From Candidatus Aenigmatarchaeota archaeon (GTDB taxonomy: Archaea; Aenigmatarchaeota; Aenigmatarchaeia; GW2011-AR5; JACRMX01): a DNA stretch of 39,806 bases. Positions within the stretch are counted from its first letter, which is position 1. Every line of letters starts with the position of its first letter. The stretch is taken from the NCBI GenBank assembly GCA_018304635.1, contig JAGVVW010000051.1, forward strand, positions 1 to 39,806, read 5' to 3'. Position numbers and translations under genes: made by a program. Under the pieces are notes generated by a model. The model was given only the letters and a program-made list of their open reading frames with translations, was not told the DNA's origin and made no database searches. This document shows positions 4,886-24,781 of the stretch, piece after piece.

Positions 4886-4897
4886 ATACATATGTAT
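4886..4897. promoter_or_regulatory. Palindromic operator ATACATATGTAT over the start codon
   Basis: This 12-bp perfect palindrome contains the ATG of the HTH-MNT gene. The half-site TGTAT recurs 20 bp upstream (4873-4877), in the same register as the tandem operators of the other modules, but the second palindrome is imperfect. Confidence 0.5.
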
Positions 4898-5470: not shown

Positions 5471-5930
5471 AAGATTGAAGTGGTGTTTTGGATTGAAAGA
5501 CGGGATGAAAGTCGTCGAGCCAAATGAAAGGTTATCCAAATCTTACCTCGAAGAATCTAAATCTTCACTACTTAGGGCAGAGAAAAATTTCAGAGAAGAT
5601 GATCTGTTATGGACAACCGTAGTTATTTACTATTCAGAGTATTATGCTCTGTATTCTTTTCTTCAGAGAATCGGTATAAAATGTGAGAACCATTCCTGTT
5701 CGATTTTTGCAGTTACGACACTATTGGGAAAAGACAAAACAAAGACAATAGAGTCCCATAAGAATAAGAGAATAGATGCGCAGTACTATATGAAAGTCGA
5801 TAAAAAGGATGAAATATACAAAATGCTGCATGAAGCTAAAACATTCGTATCAACATTTGATGAAATCATTTCTAATCTGAAGCAAAAAGAAATCAGTACC
5901 TATAGGAAAATTCTGAATAAATACAAATAG
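5460..5930 (+). CDS. HEPN domain protein (toxin partner of MNT)
   Basis: This protein resembles PF05168: SKSYLEESKSSLLRAEKNF at the start, a central helix WTTVVIYYSEYYALYSFLQ, and a C-terminal KRIDAQYYMKVDKKDEI that corresponds to the R-x-D-A-x-Y motif. The canonical catalytic His is replaced by Tyr. I chose the ATG at 5460, which overlaps the MNT stop by 11 bp; the track start at 5442 and an internal ATG at 5505 are possible too. It forms a module with the upstream HTH-MNT gene. It may be a toxin or a non-catalytic partner in the style of HI0074. Confidence 0.82.
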   Translation: MENRRLKWCFGLKDGMKVVEPNERLSKSYLEESKSSLLRAEKNFREDDLLWTTVVIYYSEYYALYSFLQRIGIKCENHSCSIFAVTTLLGKDKTKTIESHKNKRIDAQYYMKVDKKDEIYKMLHEAKTFVSTFDEIISNLKQKEISTYRKILNKYK

Positions 5931-5942
5931 ATTTCTCAGTCA

Positions 5943-6032
5943 CGTTTTTTTAATAATAATTGCAGACGACTATACACAATTCCTGTTCATCAAAGAACCG
6001 CAGGGCTTTTGGGATTGTTCAGGCCGGTTTAA
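5943..6032 (+). pseudogene. Decayed second copy of the small membrane protein gene
   Basis: The frame ending in TAA at 6030-6032 encodes QRTAGLLGLFRPV, identical to the tail of the 51-residue protein at 4682. Upstream, GTTTTTTTAATAATAATTGC resembles the host segment that encodes VFLTIFAN, but the reading frame is broken and the N-terminal half is absent. The convergent HEPN gene (6019-6435) takes its last codons from this relic. Confidence 0.7.
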
Positions 6033-6036
6033 ATTT
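5994..6036 (+). repeat. Right 43-nt direct repeat flanking HEPN/MNT module 3
   Basis: Counterpart of 4799-4842, matching 42 of 44 positions (GCC to GCA, and one deleted G). It has no independent function other than ending the relic gene and supplying the C-terminal codons of the HEPN gene on the other strand. Confidence 0.8.
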
Positions 6037-6435
6037 CTTTTTCAGATAATCCACTAATTTAATAACATCTCCTTTACACGATTTCACGGTTTCTTTGTCT
6101 ACGGGCTTTCCATAATAATTTATCTTATTTCGTATCTTTCTGAATCTGTCAAATTTTATGGATGCGGTATCCTCATTCAAAACATTTTTGAGAAAGTATG
6201 TATAAGCTTCGTGTGAATAAATCTTATAACCTTTTTCCACAGCCATTGCCTCAAGTAACTGTCTTAATGCATCGTAATAAGCAGACATCATGAATGAGGC
6301 ATTTGTGTCTATAATCTCCATACTTCTGAGAATAGCCAGATTATTTCCTGACATTTTTGCCAGAGCTTTAGCAAGCTGAATATCGGGGTTTCTTTTTCGT
6401 ACCTTCCCTGATTCTATAAAATCCTGAAATTTCAT
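6019..6435 (-). CDS. HEPN-like protein (toxin partner of MNT)
   Basis: This 138-residue helical protein starts MKFQDFIESGKVRKRNPDIQ, a head also seen in the partner at 9651 (FNEYVKEGMVRKQFPD). It contains the C-terminal motif FRKIRNKINYYGKPVD, which is the RN-x3-Y-Y-G signature of a HEPN subfamily in which Tyr stands where His is expected. It overlaps the upstream HTH-MNT gene by 4 bp (ATGA). Its final residues (KPA and stop) are encoded by the repeat that copies the 3' end of the small membrane gene, so its C-terminus was probably created by insertion. Confidence 0.82.
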   Translation of the reverse strand: MKFQDFIESGKVRKRNPDIQLAKALAKMSGNNLAILRSMEIIDTNASFMMSAYYDALRQLLEAMAVEKGYKIYSHEAYTYFLKNVLNEDTASIKFDRFRKIRNKINYYGKPVDKETVKSCKGDVIKLVDYLKKKFKPA

Positions 6436-6971
6436 ATAAAAACCTCAAAAAATCCACTCATTCTTATCCCGTTCATGATATTGTTAAGGAGCTCTTTATT
6501 TTCTTTTTTTATATTTTCAACCTTTTTTTTATTCATTACAAACAATTGGATCTCGCTGCCAAAAATCTTTTCAAAAGTTGCAACATCCAGATTTTTTTTA
6601 GATTCTGATAATACAAACAAATCAATGTCACTTCTTTTTGTATTCTCGCCTTTGGCATAAGAGCCGAATAAAATTATAACCTCTGGATAAAGTTCGTCTT
6701 CTATAACTTCTATCAGTCCCGAATTTCTTATTTTGGATATATTATAATAAATTTTAATGTCTTTGAATTTTTCACTTTCTGCATCCGCCTGATATAAAAT
6801 GCAATTAAATTCCTTTCTCTTTCTGAGGAAACCGTCTTTTGCCAGAATCTGAAGATATTTTGATGCCGTAGATGGATTTATTTTCAGAAGTCTGGCTATT
6901 TCTCTCACTGAAAACCTTTTTTCAGGCTCTTCAATAAATATATTCAGGATATTGTCTATTTTTTTAAACAT
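6432..6971 (-). CDS. HTH-MNT protein (nucleotidyltransferase antitoxin)
   Basis: Residues 1-60 form a winged helix (VREIARLLKINPSTASKYLQ). Residues 95-179 form a minimal nucleotidyltransferase domain with GSYAKGENTKRSDIDLFVLS. It is first in an operon with the overlapping HEPN gene. The start codon lies inside the first of two ACATATGT palindromes, so the mRNA is probably leaderless and autoregulated. The C-terminal pattern ELLNNIMNGIRMSGFFEV is shared with the MNT proteins at 104 (ELLNNLLNGIVLYGYFKV) and 9115 (RNNILGGILLSGWVEL), marking these three as close relatives. Confidence 0.88.
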   Translation of the reverse strand: MFKKIDNILNIFIEEPEKRFSVREIARLLKINPSTASKYLQILAKDGFLRKRKEFNCILYQADAESEKFKDIKIYYNISKIRNSGLIEVIEDELYPEVIILFGSYAKGENTKRSDIDLFVLSESKKNLDVATFEKIFGSEIQLFVMNKKKVENIKKENKELLNNIMNGIRMSGFFEVFI

Positions 6972-7255: not shown

Positions 7256-8575
7256 ATGTCATTTACTCTGGAAAAAATGCTGATAACTTTTGTACTTTTA
7301 GTTTTGGCTGTTGCAGCAGTTGTTTTTTTATTTCAGCTCATAATGTCCTTGTTTGACCCTTACAAAATGACTGCCATAGCCAATGCACAGGCAATGAGAA
7401 GTGCTATGGAAGAAGCATGCGTCAGCGGACAAGCCGAGCTTCAGGAATTTCAATTACCACAGAACACCATGGAAAAGCTTTTCAATTATCCGGTTATAGG
7501 CAAAGCTGCACAGGCAGTTGCAAAATATCAGATACGGCTTAAGGGCGATCCGACCTATATTCTATATTATGAAGCATTTCCTCCGGGCAAAGGCTATACA
7601 TGGGAATGGTATGACGACCGACTGACTGATAGAAATCTAATTTATTTAGATGATGGTTATGATGGCAAAAATTTAGCAGAGTTTACAAGCATAGTATGGA
7701 CAGGTAATGATAATATCATTGATTCATTAAAAAAGGATCATGAAGGTGATATAAGTTCAATGGTTGCCAACATTGTTTTGAATGACCAGCTGAATCCTTT
7801 ATCAGGAATAACAGCACAGGGCAGTGAAGCTCATGGTGATGATGAATGGAAAGATAAAAATAATGTGCCGCCGTGGGGCAAATGGGATGGAAATTTCTAT
7901 GCATTTGGCGGCTACATGTTTTTAGACTCCACCCACAAAAGCATGATAAAATATGCATCCTGCGGACCAAATTCGCTCTGCCTGAAAACACCTGAAGGTG
8001 TATACAGATTCCCGCTGAATTACTGTAAGGGTGTTGAGTATGTAAAGATTGTAAGAGCTCCCACATATCTTGGTGGTTTAACACGTGTTAAGTCTAAAAC
8101 ATCTGATTTTCATATTGTTAGTCCATGTAAGATTTCAGGTGAAAATCTTCCTCCAATATTTGGGGGTTATGATAATATTATTGAAATCAAAGTCAAAAGT
8201 AATGATTATAAATGTGAAAATACGATAAACTATCCACTCTATGAAATAGATGAAAATAAAAAAATTATAGATACAAAAAATGATCATTATTCATGTTTAG
8301 ATGATACAAATGAAATCGGTAAATCTTATACATTTAAAAAATACATTGAAATAACAATACCTGCACACTATCAAACTAGTGGGGTTGGTTTTTGCTCTTC
8401 ATGGAATACAGAAATTAATGAAATGGCATTTGAATATGATAACAATATAGCTAAAAGTGATATTGTTAAATCAAGTGTGTGGTTATATCCCGGAGTTGTC
8501 TATTCTGATATATTTAACAAACGCTTTGATGCATGGCCAAAGGGTGATTTTGAAATTGGACGTAGAGATATATAG
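7256..8575 (+). CDS. Exported pilin-like cluster protein, 439 residues
   Basis: It has an N-terminal membrane span (residues 8-30, MLITFVLLVLAVAAVVFLFQ), then a helical stalk (NAQAMRSAMEEACVSGQAEL), as in pilins and pseudopilins, and a large extracellular domain rich in Tyr, Asp and scattered Cys. The C-terminal part (from about residue 290) has lower GC and different composition. No catalytic motif is recognised. AAGGTAGG lies 8 bp upstream as a weak ribosome-binding site. It is followed at 11 bp by the gene at 8586. Confidence 0.75.
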   Translation: MSFTLEKMLITFVLLVLAVAAVVFLFQLIMSLFDPYKMTAIANAQAMRSAMEEACVSGQAELQEFQLPQNTMEKLFNYPVIGKAAQAVAKYQIRLKGDPTYILYYEAFPPGKGYTWEWYDDRLTDRNLIYLDDGYDGKNLAEFTSIVWTGNDNIIDSLKKDHEGDISSMVANIVLNDQLNPLSGITAQGSEAHGDDEWKDKNNVPPWGKWDGNFYAFGGYMFLDSTHKSMIKYASCGPNSLCLKTPEGVYRFPLNYCKGVEYVKIVRAPTYLGGLTRVKSKTSDFHIVSPCKISGENLPPIFGGYDNIIEIKVKSNDYKCENTINYPLYEIDENKKIIDTKNDHYSCLDDTNEIGKSYTFKKYIEITIPAHYQTSGVGFCSSWNTEINEMAFEYDNNIAKSDIVKSSVWLYPGVVYSDIFNKRFDAWPKGDFEIGRRDI

Positions 8576-8585: not shown

Positions 8586-9038
8586 ATGGAAGAATTCAAC
8601 TGGCTCATAATAACGCTGATAATTTTGCTGCTGCTTGTAGTAGTGAGCATCGATCCTGTTTACAATGCAGCGCAGGAAGCCATGCGAACCAATGTCCAGC
8701 TTATTGCCAGTGATATAGCCGGCATAATAAATGCCATGAGCCCGGCTCGTGCTGATACATGCACAAATTATGAGCTGCCAAAAATGGAATGTAGCGTAAC
8801 TATTGACCCGGATTTAGGTGAGGTGAAGGTTACGTCGGGCAAGTATGAATATTATAAATATTATATAAAGACAGACACTTCTGTGTACATAGAAGCTCCT
8901 GACAATACGTTTGCATGCGACAAGGACAGAAATATGTATTTGTATTTTTTAAAAACTGACGGAAGTTTGAATATTAAAACTTATTTGGAATTGAACGGGG
9001 ATATGGAAGAGGCAGATTTGTGCGGGGTATTAAGGTAA
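8586..9038 (+). CDS. Pilin-like cluster protein, 150 residues
   Basis: N-terminus MEEFNWLIITLIILLLLVVV with an amphipathic extension (NAAQEAMRTNVQLIASDIAG), the classic pilin/pseudopilin plan, then a small beta-rich domain with four Cys. The end of the gene (DLCGVLR and stop) is duplicated at 10111-10145 beyond the HTH-MNT/HEPN pair, so it was originally followed directly by the gene at 10133. Function is probably a minor pilin or structural subunit; no family is recognised. Confidence 0.72.
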   Translation: MEEFNWLIITLIILLLLVVVSIDPVYNAAQEAMRTNVQLIASDIAGIINAMSPARADTCTNYELPKMECSVTIDPDLGEVKVTSGKYEYYKYYIKTDTSVYIEAPDNTFACDKDRNMYLYFLKTDGSLNIKTYLELNGDMEEADLCGVLR

Positions 9039-9105: not shown

Positions 9106-9114
9106 GTGATTTAT

Positions 9115-9654
9115 ATGTATAAACTGAAGTTAACGTTATTACAACAGGAAATATTACGTTTTCTTTTTATGAACGCTGGAGAATTGTTTAATGCAAGAGG
9201 ATTAGCATTAGCTCTTGAAGTAAGTCAGCCGGCAATCGCAAAATCCCTGCCATTGCTTGAAAAGCAGGAATTTATTCATGTATCTAAGGATAGAAAATCA
9301 AAACGGTTATCTATTGAATTAAACAGGGAAAACCCGCTTGTAATAGGTGCAAAAAGAGCGGATAACATAAGGCAGATATATGAATCAGGTCTCGCGGAAT
9401 TTCTAAGAGAAAAATTTCCAGGATGCACCGTTATTGTTTTTGGCAGTTTTGCAAGAGGAGAAGACACAAAAAAATCAGATGTTGACATAGCTGTAATAGG
9501 CATAAAAAGCAAAATTATAGATACTGGTGAATTTGAAAAAAGGTTTATGAAAGAGATAAGAATCAGTTTTTACCATTCATTCAAAGAGATAAATACAGAT
9601 CTGAGAAACAACATTCTGGGAGGAATTCTTTTGTCGGGGTGGGTTGAATTATGA
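9115..9654 (+). CDS. HTH-MNT protein (nucleotidyltransferase antitoxin)
   Basis: Residues 1-60 form a winged helix (ARGLALALEVSQPAIAKSLP) and residues 95-179 an MNT domain with IVFGSFARGEDTKKSDVDIAVI. I prefer the ATG at 9115 to the track GTG at 9106, because it lies at the expected leaderless distance from the TATA box. The recognition helix (VSQPAIAKSL..LEK) resembles that of the orphan at 104 (LSAPAIIKLT..LEK), and the two genes have the same operator core. It overlaps the HEPN gene by 4 bp (ATGATG). The module sits co-directionally inside the pilin-like operon. Confidence 0.88.
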   Translation: MYKLKLTLLQQEILRFLFMNAGELFNARGLALALEVSQPAIAKSLPLLEKQEFIHVSKDRKSKRLSIELNRENPLVIGAKRADNIRQIYESGLAEFLREKFPGCTVIVFGSFARGEDTKKSDVDIAVIGIKSKIIDTGEFEKRFMKEIRISFYHSFKEINTDLRNNILGGILLSGWVEL

Positions 9655-10136
9655 TGCCTCTAAAAACTTTCAATGAATACGTAAAAGAAGGTATGGTAAG
9701 AAAGCAATTTCCAGACAAATTCAGGGCAAATTCGCTTATCACAGAATCTGAAGATTCTTACAAAATACTCCTTTCTTTTGTTGAAAAGATAGGTGTTGAT
9801 GACAATAATGCTAATCATATAATTAAAAACGCATACGACATAATAATGGAACTTATAAGAGCAAATATGATTTTAGACGGGTTTATTACTACAGGAAAAG
9901 GTGCTCACGAAGCTGAGGTATCTTATATGATTGAACTGAGTTTTAGCAACAAGGATGTAGATTTTGCAAATGAACTACGTTATTTCAGGAATGGAATTAT
10001 GTATTATGGAAAAAAGTTTGATAAAACATACGCTGAAAAGGTGTTGAGATTTACTAACAGGTTGTATCCGTTGCTTAAGAAAATCTATGAGAAAAGTTTT
10101 AATAATAAAAGGCAGATACGCGGGGTATCAAGATGA
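9651..10136 (+). CDS. HEPN-like protein (toxin partner of MNT)
   Basis: This 161-residue protein is related to the one at 6019: an N-terminal FNEYVKEGMVRKQFPDKFRA and the C-terminal motif LRYFRNGIMYYGKKFD (RN-x3-Y-Y-G, Tyr in place of His). It overlaps the MNT gene upstream by 4 bp and the pilin-like gene at 10133 downstream by 4 bp. Its last residues (RQIRGVSR) derive from the repeat copying the end of the gene at 8586. Translation of the downstream surface gene is thus coupled to the toxin-antitoxin module. Confidence 0.82.
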   Translation: MMPLKTFNEYVKEGMVRKQFPDKFRANSLITESEDSYKILLSFVEKIGVDDNNANHIIKNAYDIIMELIRANMILDGFITTGKGAHEAEVSYMIELSFSNKDVDFANELRYFRNGIMYYGKKFDKTYAEKVLRFTNRLYPLLKKIYEKSFNNKRQIRGVSR

Positions 10137-10145
10137 TAATAAATG
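10111..10145 (+). repeat. Right direct repeat flanking HEPN/MNT module 5
   Basis: GGCAGATACGCGGGGTATCA and the next 15 bases are the counterpart of 9011-9045. The repeat reconstitutes the junction with the start of the gene at 10133 and supplies the end of the HEPN gene. Confidence 0.65.
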
Positions 10146-11275
10146 CAATGTTCAGAGTGATAATAATAGTCATTTTCGCAGTTTTCATATTTGTTATTAT
10201 TCATCTTTTCACCTCACTGCGTGTTGAAGCTGAATCAAAATCAATGGAAAGATATGCAAGCGAGTTTCTTGAGAATTTAGCTAACTCTGACCTGACTGCA
10301 TCGTCTGATGTCTTTAAAGAGCCAATGTTGAGCTTTTACTCTACACCGCCAAAAAAGTTTATTTATGGTGTTGATGCTTATCAATATGTTGCAGGTGCAC
10401 CAGAGCCTTATGCACGTGCATGCTCCATCTCTTACGCAATAACAGTGGAAGAAATTTCCAAACCAGTTGCGTGCAAACAACTACTTGAATGTGAAGGATT
10501 CTGCGAGTCTGTGTGTGGCAATAAGGATAATGAACATTGTAGATGTGACAATAGCCAGTGTAGTTGCCTCGATCCGAAATCAGAAGGATGGACAACAGCC
10601 AAAAAATGGTCTTTTGGCTATGAACCCAAACAAGGTATAATTGATTCTCACAGTTACGATGATGTTCCGGCAAATATTCTGACTGCAAACGGAATAAAGC
10701 CAGCCCGTGTTACTGTAACAGCATATGATTCATGGCTCAGCAAAATTTCATGCCTGATTGAGAAAGCCTATCAAACCGCTGAAATTCAGCATATAAATAT
10801 TGATTGTCTTGCAATAGGAGAAAAACAAAAAGGTAATTGCTATTTCCGAATAGACAAGCCAAAATATATTGATACTGGTAGAATAATAAGAGATGATTAC
10901 ATATGCTTTATGAACGACAAAAATCCACTAACTCCCACTATTATAGATCCGGTTACAAACATAATATTGAGAGATAGTTTGGATTCTACAGCTCCGTTAG
11001 AATGCAGGGAAATCGATTCACGTATTGACGTTCAGGACTTTCAGGCTGATTACATAAAAACGAAAAACCAAGTTGAGAAAAATATACTTTATGCTGTTCC
11101 AGCTATAAATGTGAATGGTATACCAGACATTCCTGAGTTCTGTAAAAAAATGATTAACAGAGACCCGAATTTTATAGGTCCCAGACCTAACGGTGATTTA
11201 GAACAATATTTAGCTTGGTCCAATGATGAAATCGACAAGATCATCTTATGCTTAAAGCAGGTGGAAAACACATGA
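10133..11275 (+). CDS. Cys-rich exported cluster protein, 380 residues
   Basis: N-terminal span MFRVIIIVIFAVFIFVIIHL (residues 6-25), then an acidic helical stalk (AESKSMERYASEFLENLANS) and an extracellular domain with a dense Cys block at about 118-160 (CEGFCESVCGNKDNEHCRCD). The stalk-plus-domain plan matches the gene at 7256. No enzymatic motif is recognised. The start overlaps the HEPN stop and the end overlaps the start of the next gene (ATGA), so it is translated as part of one operon with 11272 and 12120. Confidence 0.72.
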   Translation: MIINAMFRVIIIVIFAVFIFVIIHLFTSLRVEAESKSMERYASEFLENLANSDLTASSDVFKEPMLSFYSTPPKKFIYGVDAYQYVAGAPEPYARACSISYAITVEEISKPVACKQLLECEGFCESVCGNKDNEHCRCDNSQCSCLDPKSEGWTTAKKWSFGYEPKQGIIDSHSYDDVPANILTANGIKPARVTVTAYDSWLSKISCLIEKAYQTAEIQHINIDCLAIGEKQKGNCYFRIDKPKYIDTGRIIRDDYICFMNDKNPLTPTIIDPVTNIILRDSLDSTAPLECREIDSRIDVQDFQADYIKTKNQVEKNILYAVPAINVNGIPDIPEFCKKMINRDPNFIGPRPNGDLEQYLAWSNDEIDKIILCLKQVENT

Positions 11276-12123
11276 AAGGAATACTTGATGAAATCATTGC
11301 ATCATATCTGTTTCCAGTAATCATAGGCATGTTAATTATCGTAGCTGTACTTGTATTCCTCACCTACCTGCTTGCAGGCAGAAGTCCCCTCAGCTATAAA
11401 TTCACTTACACTGAAATCACAATGGAACCATTCTACATGTCTTATGTTCTGCTGAATACTCCGGAACTTGCTGAAGAAGCTTTGCGCTCTACAATTGTTT
11501 CTTCGTTTTCAAGCGCAGATGCAAGGACATATACATCTAAAGTCAATTCTCTTTTGGAAAACTATGAGTCATATATGATAGTTCTCGAAAATGAAAAAGC
11601 TTCGCTGGCTACAATATCCACAAGCGATATGGTAGTTGCCTGCGGCGATAAAATCAAAGGATTTTGTACTGTAAACAGATTCTGGAATCAAAAATTAGAT
11701 GGCTGCGGAACAGGCCGTGTGTGGGCACCGGAGTATGACAAAGACTGTAAAATGTTGTCTGAGGAGGCGAGATGTTGCTTGCCTGATGACGAATCAAGAA
11801 TTTCGTGTCAAACATCTCTTGGTCCGGGTTCCTTTCGTTTATCATGCCAATCAGCATCAGGTACTGACAGTGAAGTATGTCCTCCTGGTGCAAAAATAGA
11901 TACATTTTTCTCAGAAAAAAGCCAGCAAAATTTAAAAGAAAATTGTAAGGAAGATATTGAAAAAATCAGTGCTGGAACGTACATTATTGAAAATGCTGTT
12001 TGCTGTTATCTAAATGATAATGTGTTATATAAAAATATCCTTGGCAGTGCATACATTCCTCTGTTTTTCAAGGATAATACTTATGGCAAAATTTACATTA
12101 CAAAAGGCGGTGTTGCTGAATGA
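11272..12123 (+). CDS. Exported cluster protein, 283 residues
   Basis: I prefer the ATG at 11272 (MKGILDEIIASYLFPVIIGM), which overlaps the upstream stop as ATGA, to the track start at 11248. A membrane span covers about residues 12-34. The following domain starts with YTEITMEPFYMSYVLLNTPE, a pattern I associate with membrane-proximal pilus-like proteins of uncultivated archaea without being able to name a family. A Cys-containing middle and C-terminal region follows. It overlaps by 4 bp the giant hydrolase gene, implying joint expression and possibly physical partnership. Confidence 0.7.
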   Translation: MKGILDEIIASYLFPVIIGMLIIVAVLVFLTYLLAGRSPLSYKFTYTEITMEPFYMSYVLLNTPELAEEALRSTIVSSFSSADARTYTSKVNSLLENYESYMIVLENEKASLATISTSDMVVACGDKIKGFCTVNRFWNQKLDGCGTGRVWAPEYDKDCKMLSEEARCCLPDDESRISCQTSLGPGSFRLSCQSASGTDSEVCPPGAKIDTFFSEKSQQNLKENCKEDIEKISAGTYIIENAVCCYLNDNVLYKNILGSAYIPLFFKDNTYGKIYITKGGVAE

Positions 12124-15100
12124 AAGGAATGGCAATGCTTAAAGTTCTTGTTCTGTCAGTATTGGCAATGGTAATGGCAATAGGTTTTTTTGTTGCTGTA
12201 TTTACTATTGGCGAGCGTGAACAGCGTTCAATATTGCAGGAATCCAGTATCATGCGCAGCCAGAATACACTGAGAATTGTTGATCAGGCTCTGAAGCACA
12301 CATGGACATTATCTTCAGTTCAGGCATTGTTTAAAGCAGGAAGTGAAGGATTTGGCTGTAAATACTGGTATCAGGGCAAGCCAGAGGCATGGAACCTCCA
12401 GTTGCCCGAGTCAGGAAACAAGCAAAATAGTATAGATGACAATCCAAGCATATGCCTGCCTCAGGATCAAAATGCAGCAAACATGATGTCATATATATTT
12501 TATGGTTACACTACAATTCCAGGAAATGATCCTGACCAAAAAACCAAAAAGTGCCAGGACCTGGCTTTAACCAAACTTACAGAGGATCCGGACTTTAATT
12601 ATCAGGGCAAAACTAATGAATATTCAACAGAAATGTTGAAATTTCGCTGCGTTGATACTACAAAGGACAGACCCGGAACAAATTCCTGCATAGAAAATAC
12701 AGGTGTAGGCTTCTGCACAGGTAATGTCCTGAAGTGTTGCATACCAGAGGATGACAGGCTCATTGCTGATGTTTTAAATCCTGATCCCAACAAGCCTAAA
12801 AGTATTGAATGTAAAGCAGCATATGTTGAAGGTGAAAAAGATACGCCATATCCAGCTTGTAAAGGTTATATGGCAGCTACATGCAAAAGCAATGAAATCG
12901 GAAATTTAAATGAACAGATATTGTCGATATTAGCTACACCACCAAAAGATATAGATTCAAAATTAGTCGAATACGAAAAAATCATCCATAAAAAGTTAGG
13001 TGATGCTGACTGCCAGAAACGGAAAGATCTTCCCGAGGGAAAAGGCGGAGACAGATGTTTCTGCATAAACCCAAAGCCCGATGCTGACTTGACATTTGAC
13101 CCTGAAGAAACCGTGATAATAAACGGCAATACTGTAAAATTTGACCCCAAATCTGAATTTACATGGCTTGGTTATGACAGGCTTCAAAACAAAGTTCAGA
13201 CAAATGTTGAAATGGAAACATTGCAAATGATCAGAAGCAATGTTGAAATGACTCATGAAATTGAGATTCAGACAAAAATGAAGTCCATGATAAAAACCGG
13301 ATGGCAGATTGTTGATGAGGCAGTCAGGCTTGGCCAGTCAATCAAAGACAAAACCATGACATTTGACTCGCCTAAAAAATTCAATGACTACATAAAGCAG
13401 ATGTTCCACCCACAAAACGTTGAAAATTTCAGGGTTGATGCTGAACCTGTAGTAAAATATAAAATAGCTAATGGCGGCGGACTGCTTGATAAACAGCAGG
13501 GCCTGTGGGCTAATTATGACACGCAGGTAAACATTATAGAAAATCAGGTTGCTGGTTATGGTTCGTATGCATCATGTGATAATAATCAGATTCCACCAGA
13601 TGTTGTAGAAAGATATAATAATTTTAAGACTGAATTTGACACTGCTGTGCAGCTAACTAAATTAGACCAGGATCTTGGTAGTGCCCAGATAGCGAATGCT
13701 GTTCTGGCTGCGATCGCGCAGCGGGAATCAGGAGTTCAGCATGCAAGTGAAGATTATACAGGAAATAAAATGCAAAAAGAATTCAAAAAGTTTGATGATG
13801 TTAAACAGGGAGAAAATTATGTTAATGGGCGCTTAGACAGTATTGACTGGGGTATCATGCAGATAAATGAAAAAGTTGATGGTGGCGGCGGCACAATTGA
13901 TGAATGTAAAGGAATAGGAACTCCAGAACAAATAAAATTAAACGCAAGGTTTAATATTCATTGCGGAGCTACTGTTTTTAGAAATAAAGTAATGTATGTT
14001 CTTGGCTATTTCAAAACAGCTAAACCAAAGGGCGAGGATCTTCTGAAAATGAGCCTTGTTGCATACAATGGCGGGCAGGATACTATAAATGATGCAAGAA
14101 ATGAATGTGTAAAAACCCATAGCGAAAATGACTGTGCTAAGTGGAGTATTTTAGAATCAGATGTTAGAGATAGAAATGAAAAAGCATACAATTATCTCAT
14201 GGCAAAAGACGGTGTTTGGGATAATATCCAGAAATGGCTCAGCTGCCTGAAGTCCATGTCAATGACATCATATTCATCAGTTGATGTGGTAATTGATCCG
14301 GGGCATGCAGGAACATACAATTCTTATTTAGATACATCAGAAGCCCAAAACAATTTTGCAGTTGCTGAAAAACTCAGAGACAAACTCTCAGCAATTGGTT
14401 ACAAAGTTCTGCTCACTAAAAACAGTGTAGACGAAGAACCAACACTATTTCCATATGATGAAGACAGAAGAGATTTCTCACCCCGAAGAGATGTTGCAGT
14501 TAAAAGCAATGCAGCATTGTTTGTGAGCATACATAGCAATGCTCTTGATGGTCAGGAACAAGGCGTTGAAACATATGTTTACTGTATACAAAAAGGTGAG
14601 GAAAATGATGGTAGTAAAAACATAAGATCTGAATCTGAAATATCAAAATGCGTGCCTCAGTATAGTCCTAGAATAGATGATTCAAAAAATATCGCACATT
14701 CAGTTACAGACAATATAGCTTCTGATATGGGATTAAATAATCGGGGAATCAAAAGTGCGGATTTTGGTGTGATAGAATCCATGCCAATGCCAGCTGTTCT
14801 TGTTGAAATGTTCTATCATGATAATCAACAGGACATCGACAAGGTTAAAGGAAAAGAAGATGAACTCGCTGAGTCTATAAAGAATGGTATCGTCCAGTAT
14901 CTCCAGTCGCATCCACGAGACATTTCCAGCCGCGTTGCTGGCGTGAAAGGGTTTCAGTTGCCTGTGAAATCTAGTACTGCTGTAATAACACAATGTCCTG
15001 AAGATCATACCAGAGATGGTAGCCACGATGCTGGTATAGATATATCTGTTTCACATTCAGAAATGTCTGGTATTGGATATAAATCAGATCCAGACAACAG

Positions 15101-16964
15101 GAAAGGCTCGCCTATTTATGCAGCAGGTGCTGGAGTAATAGAGGCTATACATATAGGACATGATGAAACAAGTGGATATGGAAACAGGATTATTATAAAA
15201 CATCAAACAGATGAAGGAACGGTTTATACATTTTACGCACATTTGTATCATGATATATCGGTAAAAAAAGGACAACAGGTTCTGGCTGGTCAGCAGATAG
15301 GAACAATGGGTGCTACAGGTCATGTTGGTGGATCCACTGGAGTTCATCTTCATTTTGAAGTAGGAAAATCTGTAAACATCGGTACAACAAATCCTCAAAT
15401 AAAAGGAGAACGATTGCATCCTTGTTTATATGTTGATTGTTTGAAATACGGAAAAACATGTGGAAAATCATTAACAGAATCTCCAACTATATTCGGCTCT
15501 GGCGATGCATCCTACACTGTCTCGCTGGAAGAAAAAATCAGACAGATGATTTTCGTGGAGACAGATAAAAATGAGGCAAAGAAACTGAAAGTTTCCGGAA
15601 TTATTATCGGTGAACCTGTAAACAATAATAAAAATTTCATATTTGCCACCCAAGATGAAGCAGAGGCATTTACAAAATCCATTGTTTCGCAGATACCGAC
15701 ATTTATTGGAATAAAAAATCTTGATTCCTTGCCAATAGAAAAACCCAAATCCCAGCAGGAATGGGGAAATGAATACAAAAAGGAAGACAATAAGGAAAAG
15801 GCATTGCAAGATATTGGAGCAGAAGGATATAGAATCTCCAAAGACCTGAGTAATATCGGTTTCAATATATATTATGGGCCGAATACTAATTTCGGAAGTA
15901 GTGAAAACAATTTCGGAAATGATGAAATAATGATATCTGAACTTGCAAAATCATATCTATCTGGGCTTCAGCAGAACGAAGTTTACGGAATTATTCATAC
16001 ATATCCGAATGAAGATAGCGTAAGACCCAATGATCGCAGTCTTATAGATTCTCAGATGAGAGTTTTGGTTCAAATAGATGATCAGGTAAAAATAATCCAG
16101 CTTGCTGAATATTCAGATGAAAATGAAATGAATGATTTGATATCAGCTGGAATAGCAGGAATGCCTGATTTACCAGTACTTACAATTACCCCAGCCATAA
16201 CAAGGGACGATCCTGCAAAACCGATTGAACAGAAAGCAAAAGAATATATTGATATTGGATTTGATATTGTTTATTTCAGGGATTTGGATTCAGAGAGTGT
16301 TGATAGAATAGTCAGCTTTTTGAAAGAGCAGGCTGAAGGTAATGAAAATATTCCGTCAAACATTCTTCTCGAGGCTAAAATAGAAAAAGCATTCAGAAAA
16401 ATCATGAAGGCAAAAGGAATTGACCCGGAATCAGGACAGCAGGTCTTCGATGTTGGAAATAATTATTATTATTACGATGAACCTAATCAAAGATTTATAA
16501 AAAAGCCGTTCGTACTTTCGTTTCGTGTTTCTGATTGGGCTCCTGTAATTGACTGCGAAAATGCAGGTATTGTTTATTATCCATTCAATGCACAAACTGA
16601 TCTGGTGTGCTGGAATAATAAGATATGGGTATGCGGAAGTCATATAGAAGGCGATAAAACAGCAGGTTCGTGGATAGATATAAATCATTATATCGGTGAC
16701 GATCAGAATAATCTGAGATGCTATAATGATGCTGACGGGCAGTTATTTGGTTTTTGTGATAAAGAATTTTGCAGTGGCGTTCCATTTTGTTCAGGCGATA
16801 AAATTGTAAGCCCGGGAGAAAATGCATACTGTAATTCAGCTGATATTCAGGATGACTGCTCAGACATGCAATGTGAAACAGGACAGCACGGGAAATGCAG
16901 TTCATATGATCCATGCATAGGCCAGTGTAAGTGTGTTGCTGACACGCCAGAAACGCCAACGTAA
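12120..16964 (+). CDS. Giant membrane-anchored multi-domain peptidoglycan hydrolase
   Basis: 1614 residues with an N-terminal span (10-30). (1) About 150-350 is Cys-containing and unassigned. (2) About 515-700 is a lytic transglycosylase/goose-lysozyme-like domain: catalytic-type Glu536 in AQRESG, then DWGIMQIN and LVAYNGG. (3) About 720-925 is Amidase_3: zinc ligands His729 (DPGH), Glu in SEAQNN, His805 (SIHSNA) and catalytic Glu896 (VLVEM). (4) About 960-1105 is an M23 endopeptidase: His969/Asp974 (SHDAGID) and His1076-x-His1078 (GVHLHFE). (5) About 1130-1420 is a GH3/NagZ-like fold (EEKIRQMIF, GIIIGEP) with degenerate catalytic motifs. (6) About 1470-1614 is a Cys-rich tail. Together these would cut glycan strands, the amide stem linkage and peptide cross-links of murein. 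Archaea lack murein, so the target is presumably bacterial. The start overlaps the upstream stop (ATGA). Confidence 0.9.
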   Translation: MKGMAMLKVLVLSVLAMVMAIGFFVAVFTIGEREQRSILQESSIMRSQNTLRIVDQALKHTWTLSSVQALFKAGSEGFGCKYWYQGKPEAWNLQLPESGNKQNSIDDNPSICLPQDQNAANMMSYIFYGYTTIPGNDPDQKTKKCQDLALTKLTEDPDFNYQGKTNEYSTEMLKFRCVDTTKDRPGTNSCIENTGVGFCTGNVLKCCIPEDDRLIADVLNPDPNKPKSIECKAAYVEGEKDTPYPACKGYMAATCKSNEIGNLNEQILSILATPPKDIDSKLVEYEKIIHKKLGDADCQKRKDLPEGKGGDRCFCINPKPDADLTFDPEETVIINGNTVKFDPKSEFTWLGYDRLQNKVQTNVEMETLQMIRSNVEMTHEIEIQTKMKSMIKTGWQIVDEAVRLGQSIKDKTMTFDSPKKFNDYIKQMFHPQNVENFRVDAEPVVKYKIANGGGLLDKQQGLWANYDTQVNIIENQVAGYGSYASCDNNQIPPDVVERYNNFKTEFDTAVQLTKLDQDLGSAQIANAVLAAIAQRESGVQHASEDYTGNKMQKEFKKFDDVKQGENYVNGRLDSIDWGIMQINEKVDGGGGTIDECKGIGTPEQIKLNARFNIHCGATVFRNKVMYVLGYFKTAKPKGEDLLKMSLVAYNGGQDTINDARNECVKTHSENDCAKWSILESDVRDRNEKAYNYLMAKDGVWDNIQKWLSCLKSMSMTSYSSVDVVIDPGHAGTYNSYLDTSEAQNNFAVAEKLRDKLSAIGYKVLLTKNSVDEEPTLFPYDEDRRDFSPRRDVAVKSNAALFVSIHSNALDGQEQGVETYVYCIQKGEENDGSKNIRSESEISKCVPQYSPRIDDSKNIAHSVTDNIASDMGLNNRGIKSADFGVIESMPMPAVLVEMFYHDNQQDIDKVKGKEDELAESIKNGIVQYLQSHPRDISSRVAGVKGFQLPVKSSTAVITQCPEDHTRDGSHDAGIDISVSHSEMSGIGYKSDPDNRKGSPIYAAGAGVIEAIHIGHDETSGYGNRIIIKHQTDEGTVYTFYAHLYHDISVKKGQQVLAGQQIGTMGATGHVGGSTGVHLHFEVGKSVNIGTTNPQIKGERLHPCLYVDCLKYGKTCGKSLTESPTIFGSGDASYTVSLEEKIRQMIFVETDKNEAKKLKVSGIIIGEPVNNNKNFIFATQDEAEAFTKSIVSQIPTFIGIKNLDSLPIEKPKSQQEWGNEYKKEDNKEKALQDIGAEGYRISKDLSNIGFNIYYGPNTNFGSSENNFGNDEIMISELAKSYLSGLQQNEVYGIIHTYPNEDSVRPNDRSLIDSQMRVLVQIDDQVKIIQLAEYSDENEMNDLISAGIAGMPDLPVLTITPAITRDDPAKPIEQKAKEYIDIGFDIVYFRDLDSESVDRIVSFLKEQAEGNENIPSNILLEAKIEKAFRKIMKAKGIDPESGQQVFDVGNNYYYYDEPNQRFIKKPFVLSFRVSDWAPVIDCENAGIVYYPFNAQTDLVCWNNKIWVCGSHIEGDKTAGSWIDINHYIGDDQNNLRCYNDADGQLFGFCDKEFCSGVPFCSGDKIVSPGENAYCNSADIQDDCSDMQCETGQHGKCSSYDPCIGQCKCVADTPETPT

Positions 16965-17005: not shown

Positions 17006-17086
17006 TTGAAAAAATACAAAAGAAGCTCATTCCTAAATTTTATATAAGGAAATATGAAATAGATAATTTATGGAAAGGTGTATGAA

Positions 17087-17455
17087 ATGAAAGCCCTGAG
17101 TTTGATGGCAGATACAGTTATATTGATAATTATAGCAGCTGTGGTGCTTGCAATCGTTCTGGTATTTTTCAAGTCATCAACTTCCAGCGGATTCGGACAG
17201 GTAAATCTTGAGCAGGAACGTGTCCAACTTTGCAGGCAGTATGTCATTGCGGATGCTCGTTGCGACAGTTTAAGCCAGGCAAGGAGTGCAAATGGTGAAG
17301 TTGTAACTAAAGTATTGGAAATGTGTAAACAAATCGGAGGATATACAGCATGTAGCGATTCAGCTAATGAACAGGAATGCATCCGCGACTGCTGCGAAAT
17401 ATTTTGCGGCGGCACGACAACAACGCAGAAACCAATACCTGCAGCTACACCATAA
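17087..17455 (+). CDS. Pilin-like protein with class III-type signal
   Basis: I prefer the ATG at 17087 (MKALSLMADTVILIIIAAVV), preceded by AAGGTG, to the track GTG at 17078. The short basic start, the hydrophobic stretch of about 20 residues and the Glu-rich helix after it match archaeal type IV pilins. A small domain with eight Cys follows (CEIFCGG near the end). It is a paralogue of the gene at 17529 (both read ...VILIIIAAVVLA / VIVMIIAAVVLA... then ...ER.x.C..Y...D..CD). It is probably a pilus subunit associated with the hydrolase operon. Confidence 0.75.
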   Translation: MKALSLMADTVILIIIAAVVLAIVLVFFKSSTSSGFGQVNLEQERVQLCRQYVIADARCDSLSQARSANGEVVTKVLEMCKQIGGYTACSDSANEQECIRDCCEIFCGGTTTTQKPIPAATP

Positions 17456-17528: not shown

Positions 17529-17855
17529 ATGAAAGGAATATCATTATCAATTGAAACTGTCATAGTAATGATAATCGCAGCTGTAGTTCTCGCAGTGCTG
17601 GTTCTTTATTTCAAGGGCACTGTTTTTCAGGGCAAATCCCAGATTGATGCAGAAGGCGAGAGGGCAAAGGCGTGTGCTGATTACATGAAGTTAGACAAAA
17701 ATTGTGACGGAAAAGCAGATGATTCAGCAAGCAGCGGTCTTTTAGATCCAGCTCGCAAGCGCATCGTTGAGATATGTAATCAGCTGAATTATCCGGAATG
17801 CAAACCCAATGATAATTCCGGCTGTATACATAAATGCTGTATCGGATGCGGATGA
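17529..17855 (+). CDS. Pilin-like protein with class III-type signal
   Basis: Begins MKGISLSIETVIVMIIAAVV. KG before a hydrophobic helix with Glu near position +5 of the mature protein is the archaeal prepilin pattern; cleavage after Gly3 is likely. The mature domain is about 75 residues with eight Cys (ending CIHKCCIGCG). It is the paralogue of 17087. The stop codon overlaps the start of the 45-residue ORF at 17852. No prepilin peptidase gene is in the window. Confidence 0.78.
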   Translation: MKGISLSIETVIVMIIAAVVLAVLVLYFKGTVFQGKSQIDAEGERAKACADYMKLDKNCDGKADDSASSGLLDPARKRIVEICNQLNYPECKPNDNSGCIHKCCIGCG

Positions 17856-22398: not shown

Positions 22399-22449
<51 letters not shown>

Positions 22450-22517
22450 AACCCTTCTTGCAAAGTTTCGATTCGAACTGCTCAACACAGGCCTCATCGA
22501 AACCTCACTCGAATGGC

Positions 22518-22555
<38 letters not shown>

Positions 22556-22843
22556 GCAAAAGATGATGACTTTCGCTTACTAGGAATTCCAGCTTCACGT
22601 GGGCGAGTTTCAGCCCACGATCCGAACTAGGCGCAGGTTTAGGAGATTTGCTTCACCTCACGGTGTTGCATCCCATTGTCCTACGCATTGTATGCCGCGT
22701 GTAGCCCAAGGAAATTCAGGCTATACAGACCTGCCGTAGCCTACTCCTTCCTCCCATTTAACACGGGCAGTCCTGTTATAGTGCTTTTGTTCCGGAGAAC
22801 AAGTTAGCAAATAACAGCGTAGATCTCGTTCGTTTCTTGACTT

Positions 22844-22956
22844 CTCCTGCTTGCAGCAGAGACTTCAAAAAGCTCCGCATTTTCTTCAAAATCCAAACAG
22901 GATTTTGAGATTTCAGAAATTTGGATATCATTATAATAAATTTCCAAAATGCAAGT
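22844..22956 (-). other. 16S insert A at E. coli position about 1092 (intron-like)
   Basis: The conserved GGGUU^AAGUCCCGC segment is interrupted: exon ...GTCTTGTT, 113 nt, then AAGTCAAG. This is the 1092 site known for archaeal rRNA introns. The first insert bases ACTT can pair with AAGT of the 3' exon, and exon UCUUG with CAAGA, which resembles a bulge-helix-bulge. The inside is strongly folded (GCATTTT/AAAATGC; CAAAATCC/GGATTTTG). No ORF. Confidence 0.65.
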
Positions 22957-22981
22957 AACAAGACACCTCACGGCACGAACT

Positions 22982-23034
22982 ATGTCGTTTCAGGAAAACA
23001 AAATATTGATTAAAATAATGCGTCTTCCTAAAAT
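22982..23034 (-). other. 16S insert B at E. coli position about 1067 (intron-like)
   Basis: 53 nt separate GGCCGTCGTC from AGTTCGTGCCG, which are contiguous in normal 16S (CGUC^AGCUCGUG). The site is within a base or two of the known archaeal intron site 1068. AGGAA near the insert start pairs with TTCCT near its end, and the exon GTCGT can pair with ACGAC in the insert. It may instead be a retained expansion. Confidence 0.55.
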
Positions 23035-23277
23035 GACGACGGCCATGCAGCACTTTTGCTGCTCGAAGAGAAGAAATATTTAACATATATTTCCTTCAGA
23101 TAAGTTCAAAGAACAAAAGTTCAGATTTAATATTTCTGATTCTTTTCTTCAAGTCTCAGCTTGTCAGGTAAGCCCTTCAGGCTGACCGATCATTCTGCTG
23201 TCTTTCCTGGTGAGATTTCCGGCGTTGAATCCAATTGAACCGCAGCATCCACTCCTGGTAGTGCTCCCCCGCCAATT

Positions 23278-23536
23278 TGGGTAAAAGAAACCACAAATTT
23301 TATCTTCCACTTTTCTTAAACACTGTTCCGCCCCATCTTCACTCAAATACCAATTATCTCTTAATTCCAAGAGAACTTTTAATAAAAAATCTTTATACAA
23401 ACTAAGATGTTGCTCAACACAATAATGTCTATTAAAAAATTCATTTATATTTGGAGGTGTTCTAAAAAGAGTTAAGCTATAGCTATACAGTATAAATCTT
23501 TACATCCAATCTTTTTATATATTCAGTTTCTTTTAT
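23278..23536 (-). other. 16S insert C2 at E. coli position about 919 (intron-like, with ORF remnant)
   Basis: About 259 nt interrupt the universal AAACTTAAAGGAA^TTGGCGG segment at the 919 intron site. TAAAAGAAAC at the 5' end pairs perfectly with GTTTCTTTTA at the 3' end, giving a 10-bp closing stem. An open frame of about 60 codons (YSLTLFRTPPNINEFFNRHY onward, ending LRKVEDKICGFF) runs through it without a stop into the exon. It has no clear LAGLIDADG motif and may be a decayed homing endonuclease. Confidence 0.65.
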
Positions 23537-23547
23537 TTCCCTTAAGT

Positions 23548-23578
23548 ATCCTGGTCCCTACATTCTGCCAGTAGGAGT
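23548..23578 (-). other. 16S insert C1 at E. coli position about 908 (short insert)
   Basis: 31 nt lie between GACTGAAA and ACTTAAGG, normally contiguous at 907-911 (site 908 is another known archaeal intron site). Between C1 and C2 only an 11-nt exon remains. The insert can fold as TCC-CTGG/CCAG-GGA. Boundaries are ambiguous by one A. Confidence 0.5.
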
Positions 23579-23698
23579 TTTCAGTCTTGCGGCCGTACTC
23601 CCCAGGCGGCCCGTTTAACACCTTCGCTACGGCACTACAAAACCCCAAGAGTTTTGTAACACCAAACGGGCATCGTTAACAGCTAGGACTAACTGGGT

Positions 23699-23814
23699 TT
23701 TTATAGCCTTCTAAAAAATAGAACCTTGAGAATTTTTCAATATACAGTCGAAAAACTGTCGAATAGTTTTCTCTTTCCCCAAGGGCTTTCTCTTTTTTAA
23801 AAGAGAAAGGGCTT
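23699..23814 (-). other. 16S insert D at E. coli position about 795 (intron-like)
   Basis: About 116 nt split the universal GGATTAGATA^CCC segment of the decoding-side 790 loop. The insert starts with an 11-bp hairpin (CTTTCTCTTTT/AAAAGAGAAAG), and AGCC near its 5' end can pair with GGCT near its 3' end. Disruption of such a conserved loop makes removal by splicing more likely than retention. Confidence 0.6.
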
Positions 23815-23880
23815 ATCTAATCCAGGTCGCTCCCCTAGCTTTCGTCCCTCACTGTCAGACCCGTTCCAGTCAGACGCCTT

Positions 23881-23989
23881 ATGCGGAAAAGTCATATAAA
23901 AATTATGTTTATTATAACTTTTCGCCACAGGTGGTCCGTTAAGGATTAACGGAATGTAAATTCTCTTTTTTTGATAAAGAGAAATTTTT
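23881..23989 (-). other. Two expanded 16S hairpins (about E. coli 690-740)
   Basis: At 23881-23922 the tip of a normally short helix is replaced by GCGGAAAAGT...ACTTTTCGC with a long AT loop. At about 23955-23989 CTCTTTTT and AAAGAG form another added stem. Both extend existing helices, so they are expansion segments rather than introns. A further expansion lies at about 24055-24118. Confidence 0.5.
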
Positions 23990-24781
23990 ACCCCTACCCC
24001 TAACGTACCTCTGACCTCTCCCGGTCTCAAGCTGAATAGTATCCTTAGCACGCCAAACAGTTTTCTGTTCGATTTTGTGTTCGAAGAACGCAAAATGTAG
24101 AATGCACCGCATTCTTCAAATTTCACCAAGGACTTATTCAACCAGCTACGGACGCTTTAGGCCAAATAAACGTGATAACCACTCGTGGCGCGGTTATTAC
24201 CGTGGCGGCTGGCTTACGGAAGAACAAGAATATCTCATTCCTTAACCGTCTTGCCCACCACTTATTCGCCTACCTCTTTAGAGTAGACAAAAGAATACGC
24301 CAAAAGCATATTCACTCAGGATTCCCCCGTCACGCTTTCGCGCATTGCGGAGTTTTCGCAACTGCTGCGCCCCGTAGGGCCTGGACTAATGTTTTCTGCC
24401 AGTAGAGTAGAAAAATTTAGAGTACTCTACAAGTCTCAGAGTCCATCTCTGGGCCATCGCTCTCACGACCCATACAGATTATCGTCTTGTTGGGCATTTA
24501 CCCCAACAACAAACTAATCTGACGCAGTCCTATCCTTAAGCGCCGAAGCTTTGGATGATAAGGCGTTCCAGCCATAATCATCTATAAGGTATTATTCGCA
24601 GTTTCCCACGATTATTCCTTACTTAAGGGCAAGTTAACTACGTGTTACTGAGCAGTTCGCCGAGCTTGCGCTCAGACTCGCATGTCTTAACCGAATCCTG
24701 ATAGCAGTTATCTCCGGCGGGATCAACCAGAATTGAAAAAGGAAAGCACAAAAGTTTTTTCCCTGCTTAACAAGTTTTGCC

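What the first reader, a model, noticed from the sequence alone, without database searches (positions are those of the whole stretch)
12120..16964. An archaeal surface protein that combines four murein-hydrolase folds
Seen: one ORF with a membrane anchor, a transglycosylase/lysozyme-like domain (Glu536, GIMQIN, AYNGG), Amidase_3 (His729, SEAQNN, His805, Glu896), M23 (SHDAGID, GVHLHFE), a GH3/NagZ-like domain and a Cys-rich tail. Known: these families hydrolyse bacterial peptidoglycan; archaea do not make it, and methanogen pseudomurein is cut by other families. Inference: the protein attacks bacterial walls, either to kill, feed on, or attach to and enter bacteria. I know of no described archaeal protein with this combination.
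Basis: partly seen in the sequence, partly recalled or inferred. Interest (0 to 1): 0.95.

Follow-up and report, generated by a model that had tools for sequence, protein, structure and literature searches.

The report
Archaeal pilus subunit carrying wall-cutting enzymes
A tiny uncultured archaeon, which shows no sign of making the bacterial wall polymer murein, encodes a giant pilus-type protein loaded with three bacterial-wall-cutting enzyme domains, and its relatives carry different wall-cutting enzymes on subunits of the same pilus operon, which suggests a surface filament built to bite into bacteria.

Summary
The ORF (12120-16964, 1614 aa) is real and archaeal: the same contig carries an archaeal 16S gene, and the gene recurs in 25 of 31 genomes of its order (Aenigmatarchaeota). 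Amidase_3 and M23 are firm. The SLT transglycosylase is firm once profiled against relatives. The fourth "GH3/NagZ" fold is not established. In relatives this run follows a FlaI/TadA-type ATPase and a TadC-type platform gene; the window's genome has both, on other contigs, plus a prepilin peptidase. Across the class, N- and C-terminal parts of this subunit stay while the hydrolase cargo changes (SLT, glucosaminidase, Amidase_2, Amidase_3, M23, YkuD) or is absent. In other families SLT and M23 sit on other subunits of the same run. No cargo-bearing genome of the order has a murein ligase. Best reading: a modular pilin of a type IV filament that presents murein hydrolases to bacterial walls. Archaeal murein hydrolases and bacterial modular pilins are known; I found no report of a hydrolase-armed archaeal filament. 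Activity, filament location and purpose are untested.

The parts
12120..16964 (+). E: 1614-aa modular pilin-like protein with murein-hydrolase cargo
   Evidence: orthologues in 25 of 31 genomes of the order
12120..12539 (+). E N-terminal carrier: class III (prepilin) leader MKG|MA..., hydrophobic helix, conserved SLxxTWxxSxVQ block and YW motif
   Evidence: alignment A3; leader pattern in 15/15 complete family members against 38/237 ORFs of the same loci, cassette genes included
13671..14114 (+). SLT-type lytic transglycosylase domain (residues about 518-665; Glu536, GIMQI, AYNGG)
   Evidence: Pfam 17.7 bits, below cut-off; 36.5-38.9 bits with a profile of relatives that excludes it; alignment
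14277..14903 (+). Amidase_3 (N-acetylmuramoyl-L-alanine amidase) domain, residues about 720-928
   Evidence: Pfam 2.9e-33; solved amidases 5emi, 4rn7 and others; metal ligands aligned
15003..15389 (+). M23 (LytM-like) endopeptidase domain, residues about 962-1090; HLHFE present, first His displaced (H969/D970)
   Evidence: Pfam 1.2e-19; solved M23 structures; alignment
15465..16457 (+).
   Evidence: Pfam 16.2 bits below cut-off 27; all negative or uninformative
16455..16964 (+). E C-terminal carrier domain (YYYYD...C...C) and Cys-rich tail; the domain is kept also in relatives without cargo
   Evidence: phmmer of residues 1431-1614 against fetched ORFs
7256..8575 (+). A: pilin-like operon subunit (family F5)
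   Evidence: conserved in the same order in relatives; profile E 2e-122 (the profiles include the window proteins)
8586..9038 (+). B: pilin-like operon subunit (family F6); carries SLT in other genomes, including the nearest relative G001
   Evidence: G001 B with SLT
9106..10136 (+). Inserted nucleotidyltransferase gene plus partner gene (MNT/HEPN-like), not part of the filament operon
   Evidence: NTP_transf_2 E 4.2e-10; no homologue in relatives' operons
10133..11275 (+). C: pilin-like operon subunit (family F4)
11248..12123 (+). D: pilin-like operon subunit (family F3), class III leader HMKG|ILDE...; overlaps the start of E by 4 bases
17078..17455 (+). F: small pilin-like protein (MKALSLMADTVIL...)
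   Evidence: sequence; position in the operon
17529..17855 (+). G: small pilin-like protein (MKGISLSIETVIV..., family F2)
22401..24733 (-). Archaeal SSU rRNA gene: places the contig in Archaea
   Evidence: Rfam RF01959, 1090.7 bits

Best explanation
E is a modular minor pilin. Its prepilin leader is cut by the A24 prepilin peptidase, its N-terminal helix enters a type IV filament (or a pilin-type tip complex) together with subunits A-D, F and G, and the filament is built by the FlaI/TadA-type ATPase and TadC-type platform encoded elsewhere in the genome. The conserved N- and C-terminal parts are the carrier; the middle is exchangeable cargo. In this protein the cargo can cleave murein glycan strands (SLT), the amide between glycan and stem peptide (Amidase_3) and possibly cross-links (M23). 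The archaeon shows no sign of making murein, so the substrate is a neighbouring bacterium's wall: the filament brings the enzymes into contact and opens the wall locally, for attachment, feeding or killing. Shown: sequence, domains, operon, leader, machinery genes, cargo exchange, no Mur ligase detected. Inferred: assembly into a filament, tip position, enzymatic activity, bacterial target, biological purpose.
For: Domains. Class III leader in 15/15 complete family members, against 38/237 ORFs of the same loci with the cassette genes included. Operon order F11 (T2SSE ATPase) - F7 (T2SSF platform) - F8 - A - B - C - D - E - F2 in several genomes. The window's own genome has F7 (50% identity, G000:C4), F11 (54%, C16; best NCBIfam matches FlaI 1e-40 and TadA 1.5e-33, below their cut-offs) and a prepilin peptidase. 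E is single-copy in 25/31 genomes. Cargo varies on a constant carrier: M23 alone; SLT; SLT+M23; SLT+Amidase_2 with or without M23; glucosaminidase+M23+Amidase_3; SLT+Amidase_3+M23; none. More distant class members have YkuD+Amidase_3 (L035) or SLT+Amidase_2 (L047, L205) on comparable large subunits. Cargo moves between subunits: in the nearest relative G001, B carries SLT; in nine genomes of two other families SLT is on one pilin-like subunit and M23 on another of the same short run. No Mur_ligase_M in the own genome nor in any of the 10 order genomes with detected E cargo.
Against: No filament, cleavage or activity has been observed. In the window's own family the pilin run is not next to F11/F7 (other contigs), so pairing rests on synteny in other families, and the genome has two further T2SSE ATPases (C33, C39). 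About half of the order's E proteins have no detected cargo, so the filament must have another function too. Most TadC loci outside this group show no hydrolase nearby (4 of 80; many are truncated). The M23 zinc motif is atypical and may be inactive. The predicted carrier structure is low confidence (pLDDT 41.5) and matched no solved pilin.
Confidence: 0.62

Rival explanations
1. Anchored scavenging enzyme: E is a membrane-anchored multi-enzyme hydrolase that digests murein debris for nutrients. The pilin-type leader only serves for export and anchoring and no filament is involved.
For: Cargo alone would suit this. The genome also holds other exported-looking hydrolases: adjacent M23 and SLT genes on C21 and an M23+NlpC/P60 protein on C10.
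Against: Conserved operon with several pilin-like subunits next to the filament ATPase and platform genes in relatives; the same carrier is kept where there is no cargo; hydrolases also sit on other subunits of the run.
Confidence: 0.17
2. Own-envelope clearing: the hydrolases let the filament pass the producer's own envelope, as VirB1-type transglycosylases and PrgK do for bacterial type IV secretion.
For: Hydrolases with SLT and other murein-cleaving domains are standard parts of bacterial T4SS (PMC12102498).
Against: No Mur_ligase_M in the own genome (88% complete) or in any cargo-bearing genome of the order; the 7 genomes that have one hit each have no detected E cargo. Many relatives keep the carrier without any hydrolase.
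Confidence: 0.08
3. DNA or metabolite uptake filament: the hydrolase filament lyses or perforates bacteria so that DNA and nutrients can be pulled in, like competence-linked wall hydrolases of streptococci.
For: DPANN are nutritionally dependent; type IV filaments commonly take up DNA (established knowledge). Compatible with all the genomic data.
Against: No uptake genes were identified in the operon; it differs from the best explanation only in purpose.
Confidence: 0.1
4. Assembly chimera or phage-derived lysin, not an archaeal gene.
For: The enzyme domains match phage endolysin families and bacterial amidases.
Against: Archaeal 16S 5 kb away on the contig; same carrier and operon in many independent archaeal genomes; no phage family matches any other pilin-like operon subunit.
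Confidence: 0.02

Closest known systems
Modular type IV pilins (PilB/PilC of Streptococcus sanguinis; PMC8179133)
   Same: Prepilin leader and helix with a bulky functional module grafted on for presentation by a type IV filament; many architectures exist.
   Different: Those are bacterial, and the predicted functions given for the commonest architectures are binding and, in one case, peptidase activity; here the carrier is archaeal, much larger, and the cargo is a set of murein hydrolases.
Kil Tad pilus with adaptable tips of Myxococcus xanthus (PMC12075869)
   Same: A type IV filament with exchangeable large minor-pilin tips, used against bacteria by contact.
   Different: Bacterial; the paper's text does not mention hydrolase or peptidoglycan and killing is coupled to a needleless T3SS; here the subunits themselves carry wall hydrolases. 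No homology was tested.
Large DPANN lytic transglycosylase proteins, fam00969 (Castelle 2021, PMC8204110; Vigneron 2022, PMC9723730)
   Same: Large extracellular DPANN proteins with a murein transglycosylase domain, proposed to bind or degrade bacterial walls.
   Different: Described in Pacearchaeota and Woesearchaeota with the LT domain only; the passages read report no pilin leader or pilus operon. Giant SLT proteins of this sort exist separately in this order (e.g. L215, L218).
Archaeal peptidoglycan hydrolases that kill bacteria (Strock 2025, PMC12352652)
   Same: Archaeal proteins with murein-cleaving domains aimed at bacteria; Nanoarchaeota are listed as rich in them.
   Different: That survey required a cell-wall-binding domain and treated secreted or CIS-delivered enzymes; no filament delivery was proposed in the sections read.
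PrgK/VirB1 multidomain hydrolases of type IV secretion systems (PMC12102498)
   Same: Multidomain murein hydrolase linked to a surface machine.
   Different: Unrelated machine; those hydrolases open the producer's own wall.
Archaeal type IV pili (Makarova 2016, PMC4858521; 2019, PMC6393860)
   Same: ATPase, TadC platform and diverse pilins; the DPANN islands shown in 2019 were read as diverse pilins.
   Different: Neither paper's text mentions murein, peptidoglycan, amidase or transglycosylase.

Membership tests
Type IV pilin / type IV filament subunit | Class III signal peptide: short hydrophilic leader ending in Gly, then a hydrophobic helix | tested here: met
   MKG|MAMLKVLVLSVLAMVMAIGFFVAVF; 15/15 complete family members; the leader in the window protein is very short (3 residues)
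Type IV pilin / type IV filament subunit | Encoded with filament ATPase and platform protein | tested here: met
   Contiguous in several relatives; present but on other contigs in the own genome
Type IV pilin / type IV filament subunit | Prepilin peptidase in the genome | tested here: met
   Peptidase_A24, E 7.5e-7, over cut-off
Type IV pilin / type IV filament subunit | Pilin fold: long N-terminal helix and beta-sheet head | tested here: inconclusive
   Model of a cargo-less relative shows helix 7-75 and beta-strands but pLDDT 41.5 and no fold match
Type IV pilin / type IV filament subunit | Assembly into a filament | not testable with these tools
   needs cryo-ET or filament proteomics
SLT lytic transglycosylase (GH23-like) | Catalytic Glu and GxMQ / YNxG motifs within the fold | tested here: met
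   sub-threshold in Pfam itself
Amidase_3 | Zn ligands His, Glu, His and catalytic Glu | tested here: met
   Pfam 2.9e-33
Peptidase M23 | HxxxD and HxH zinc motifs | tested here: inconclusive
   HLHFE present; the HxxxD His position is Asp970 with His969 one residue off, so fold membership is firm and activity doubtful
GH3 / NagZ | GH3 N-terminal TIM barrel match above curated cut-off | tested here: not met
   16.2 bits against 27; searches give no support
GH3 / NagZ | Conserved KHFPGHG region and nucleophile Asp | tested here: not met
   inspection of residues 1105-1446; motif known from established knowledge of the family

The most novel reading that the evidence does not exclude
Aenigmatarchaea of several families build a type IV filament whose minor subunits are interchangeable murein hydrolases: a dedicated cross-domain apparatus with which small archaea perforate bacterial walls to attach to, feed on or enter bacterial hosts.
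Probability: 0.4. Interest if true: 0.95.

Novelty: new variant of a known kind. Interest (0 to 1): 0.85.

Why it matters
The established hosts of cultivated DPANN are archaea, and whether many DPANN live on bacteria is an open question. A hydrolase-bearing filament would be a concrete, testable device for archaeon-on-bacterium attack. It would also extend modular pilins, known mainly as adhesins in bacteria, to wall-cutting enzymes in archaea, and it offers natural multi-enzyme murein hydrolases for biochemistry.

Tried and rejected
Chimera or contamination: rejected (archaeal 16S on the contig; operon recurs in other archaeal genomes). Phage or prophage origin of the locus: rejected (PHROGs match only the enzyme domains and, weakly, the filament ATPase). 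GH3 domain: could not be supported by Pfam cut-off, PDB sequence search, viral scan, single-sequence AlphaFold or Foldseek. Carrier structure: AlphaFold with five rows gave pLDDT 41.5 and Foldseek nothing significant; not used as evidence. PDB search with the SLT segment found nothing relevant. Survey of 80 named TadC loci: hydrolase ORFs seen in only 4, mostly because other DPANN groups lack this cargo or the contigs end. L034 (G013) looked like a divergent SLT/M23 carrier, but profile comparison gave no support.
Full report
Observation. The window contains one uninterrupted frame of 1614 aa at 12120-16964. Pfam finds Amidase_3 (2.9e-33) and M23 (1.2e-19) well above cut-off, SLT (17.7 bits, cut-off 21.3) and GH3 (16.2 bits, cut-off 27) below it. 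The SLT call becomes firm when a profile is made from five relatives whose SLT domains pass Pfam on their own: it scores the window segment at 36.5-38.9 bits although the window was left out, and the catalytic Glu, GIMQI and AYNGG align. Amidase_3 retains every ligand position seen in relatives and matches solved amidases. M23 matches solved LytM-type enzymes, but its first zinc His is displaced by one residue (H969/D970), so its activity is uncertain. The GH3-like region found no support from solved-structure sequences, the fetched loci, viral contigs, a single-sequence model or fold search. I therefore count three established murein-hydrolase folds, not four.

Host. The contig carries an archaeal 16S gene (1090 bits) about 5 kb downstream and an Obg-like GTPase of the YGR210 type. 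The genome is a 1.08-Mb, 88%-complete bin. Contigs of three genomes of the same order match in length the named records JANQNA010000003, JACPDL010000003 and JACPAH010000007; the last two are titled Candidatus Aenigmatarchaeota. The host is thus a DPANN archaeon of the Aenigmatarchaeota. The genome has no Mur_ligase_M match. Seven of 31 genomes of the order have a single such hit, none of them among the ten with detected E cargo.

The missing context. The 'membrane anchor' is a class III prepilin-type leader: MKG followed by a long hydrophobic helix. The same [K/R]G-plus-helix pattern is present in 15 of 15 complete family members, against 38 of 237 ORFs of at least 200 aa in the same loci, cassette genes included. 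E is the large last gene of a run of pilin-like genes, A (7256-8575), B (8586-9038), C (10133-11275), D (11248-12123), E, then small pilin-like genes F and G. The run is interrupted in this genome by a nucleotidyltransferase pair (9106-10136). A-E and G have orthologues in the same order in relatives. There the run follows a T2SSE ATPase and a T2SSF platform gene. In the window's genome these two genes lie on other contigs: the platform on C4 (50% identity) and the ATPase on C16 (54%), the latter resembling FlaI and TadA ATPases. A prepilin peptidase is also encoded. The platform is found in 29 of 31 and E in 25 of 31 genomes of the order.

Cargo exchange. E has a constant N-terminal part (about residues 1-140) and a constant C-terminal domain (about 1446-1560), both kept in relatives that lack any enzyme. 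Between them the cargo differs: M23 alone in G008, G016, G021 and G028; SLT in G027; SLT and M23 in G025; SLT and Amidase_2 in G009, plus weak M23 in G004; glucosaminidase, M23 and Amidase_3 in G001; SLT, Amidase_3 and M23 here. In more distant families of the class, comparable large subunits carry SLT with Amidase_2 (L047, L205) or YkuD with Amidase_3 (L035). Cargo also moves between subunits. In the nearest relative G001, subunit B carries an SLT domain over cut-off. In nine genomes of two other families (G140, G137, G132, G147, G148, G143, G039, G120, G142) SLT sits on one pilin-like subunit and M23 on another of the same short run (Pfam check). Over the class, SLT occurs in 41 of 156 genomes, and by my count in at least 21 of these it lies on a subunit with an N-terminal hydrophobic helix within or next to such a run. 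Amidase_3 occurs in only four genomes of the class, always in a protein of about 1200 aa or more. Repeated placement of unrelated enzymes that share one substrate on one type of carrier is the strongest argument that murein is the substrate and the filament the delivery device.

Mechanism. Shown from sequence: leader, operon, machinery genes, domain content, cargo exchange, no Mur ligase detected. Inferred: processing by the prepilin peptidase, insertion of the N-terminal helix into a filament or tip complex, contact with a bacterial neighbour and local opening of its wall by glycan and amide cleavage, with M23 acting as endopeptidase or, if degenerate, as a helper. In bacteria, degenerate LytM domains (EnvC, NlpD, ActS) activate Amidase_3 enzymes (established knowledge); ActS and NlpD are among the better NCBIfam matches of this M23 domain. 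The purpose (attachment, feeding, killing, entry, DNA uptake) cannot be decided from genomes. Since carriers without cargo are common, the filament must also work without hydrolases, presumably as an adhesion or contact pilus.

Comparison with what is known. Archaeal murein hydrolases that kill bacteria were shown for haloarchaea and surveyed across archaea (PMC12352652). Large DPANN transglycosylase proteins and predation were proposed (PMC8204110; PMC9723730). Modular pilins with grafted domains are widespread in bacteria (PMC8179133), and Myxococcus kills with a Tad pilus that has exchangeable tips (PMC12075869). Bacterial type IV secretion uses multidomain hydrolases on its own wall (PMC12102498). 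None of the passages read, and no listed hit of ten literature searches, described hydrolase domains on archaeal filament subunits. I file E as a modular pilin-like protein with murein-hydrolase cargo: the sequence features of a pilin are met, the fold and filament assembly are untested or inconclusive, and GH3 membership is rejected on present evidence.

Limits. No experiment exists. Structure predictions were too weak to use. In the window's family the pilin run is not adjacent to the ATPase and platform, and two other T2SSE ATPases exist, so the pairing is by synteny in sister families. The domain survey of distant loci used profiles that I built from this protein family; the key cases were re-checked with Pfam. 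The genomes are mostly incomplete MAGs, so absences are soft.

Noticed in passing
22401-24733 (-): The archaeal SSU rRNA match spans 2333 bases for a 1478-position model, with several inserted stretches of roughly 30-45 bases or more at different places; expanded or intron-bearing 16S.
   Followed up: partly
104-628 (-), 2168-3083 (-), 4892-5930 (+), 6019-6971 (-), 9106-10136 (+): Five small gene units with nucleotidyltransferase-like motifs (GSxxRGExxxxSDxD), mostly paired with a partner gene (MNT/HEPN toxin-antitoxin-like), crowd the start of the contig; one splits the pilin operon between B and C.
   Followed up: partly
G000:C21 (L051:5233-5898 and 5825-6802): Two adjacent further hydrolase genes in the same genome, M23 (2.4e-18) and SLT (3.1e-11), with twin-arginine-like N-termini.
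   Followed up: partly
G000:C10 (L050:782-4054): A 1090-aa protein with M23 and a weak NlpC/P60 match: a further large murein-hydrolase-like protein in this genome.
   Followed up: partly
15003-15389 and the M23 region of L033:9465-13124: Both M23 domains that share a protein with Amidase_3 (window and G001) lack one canonical zinc ligand, while most M23 domains on carriers without Amidase_3 are canonical (L044 is an exception); possibly amidase plus degenerate LytM activator.
   Followed up: partly
L215, L216, L217, L218, L219, L220: A separate set of giant proteins (1400-3600 aa) with an SLT domain in the same order, mostly without a pilin leader, resembling the large DPANN transglycosylase proteins of PMC8204110; L218 also has F5/8 type C domains.
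   Followed up: partly
L214:5141-9616: 1491-aa protein of another class member with Peptidase_C25 and Amidase_3 domains.
   Followed up: no
922-2094 (+): Cys-rich 390-aa protein with a class III leader (MKGIQNN...), no family match; possibly a further pilin-like subunit.
   Followed up: no
27307-29308 (-): N6_N4 DNA methylase followed by a 241-aa protein without Pfam match, likely a restriction-modification pair.
   Followed up: no
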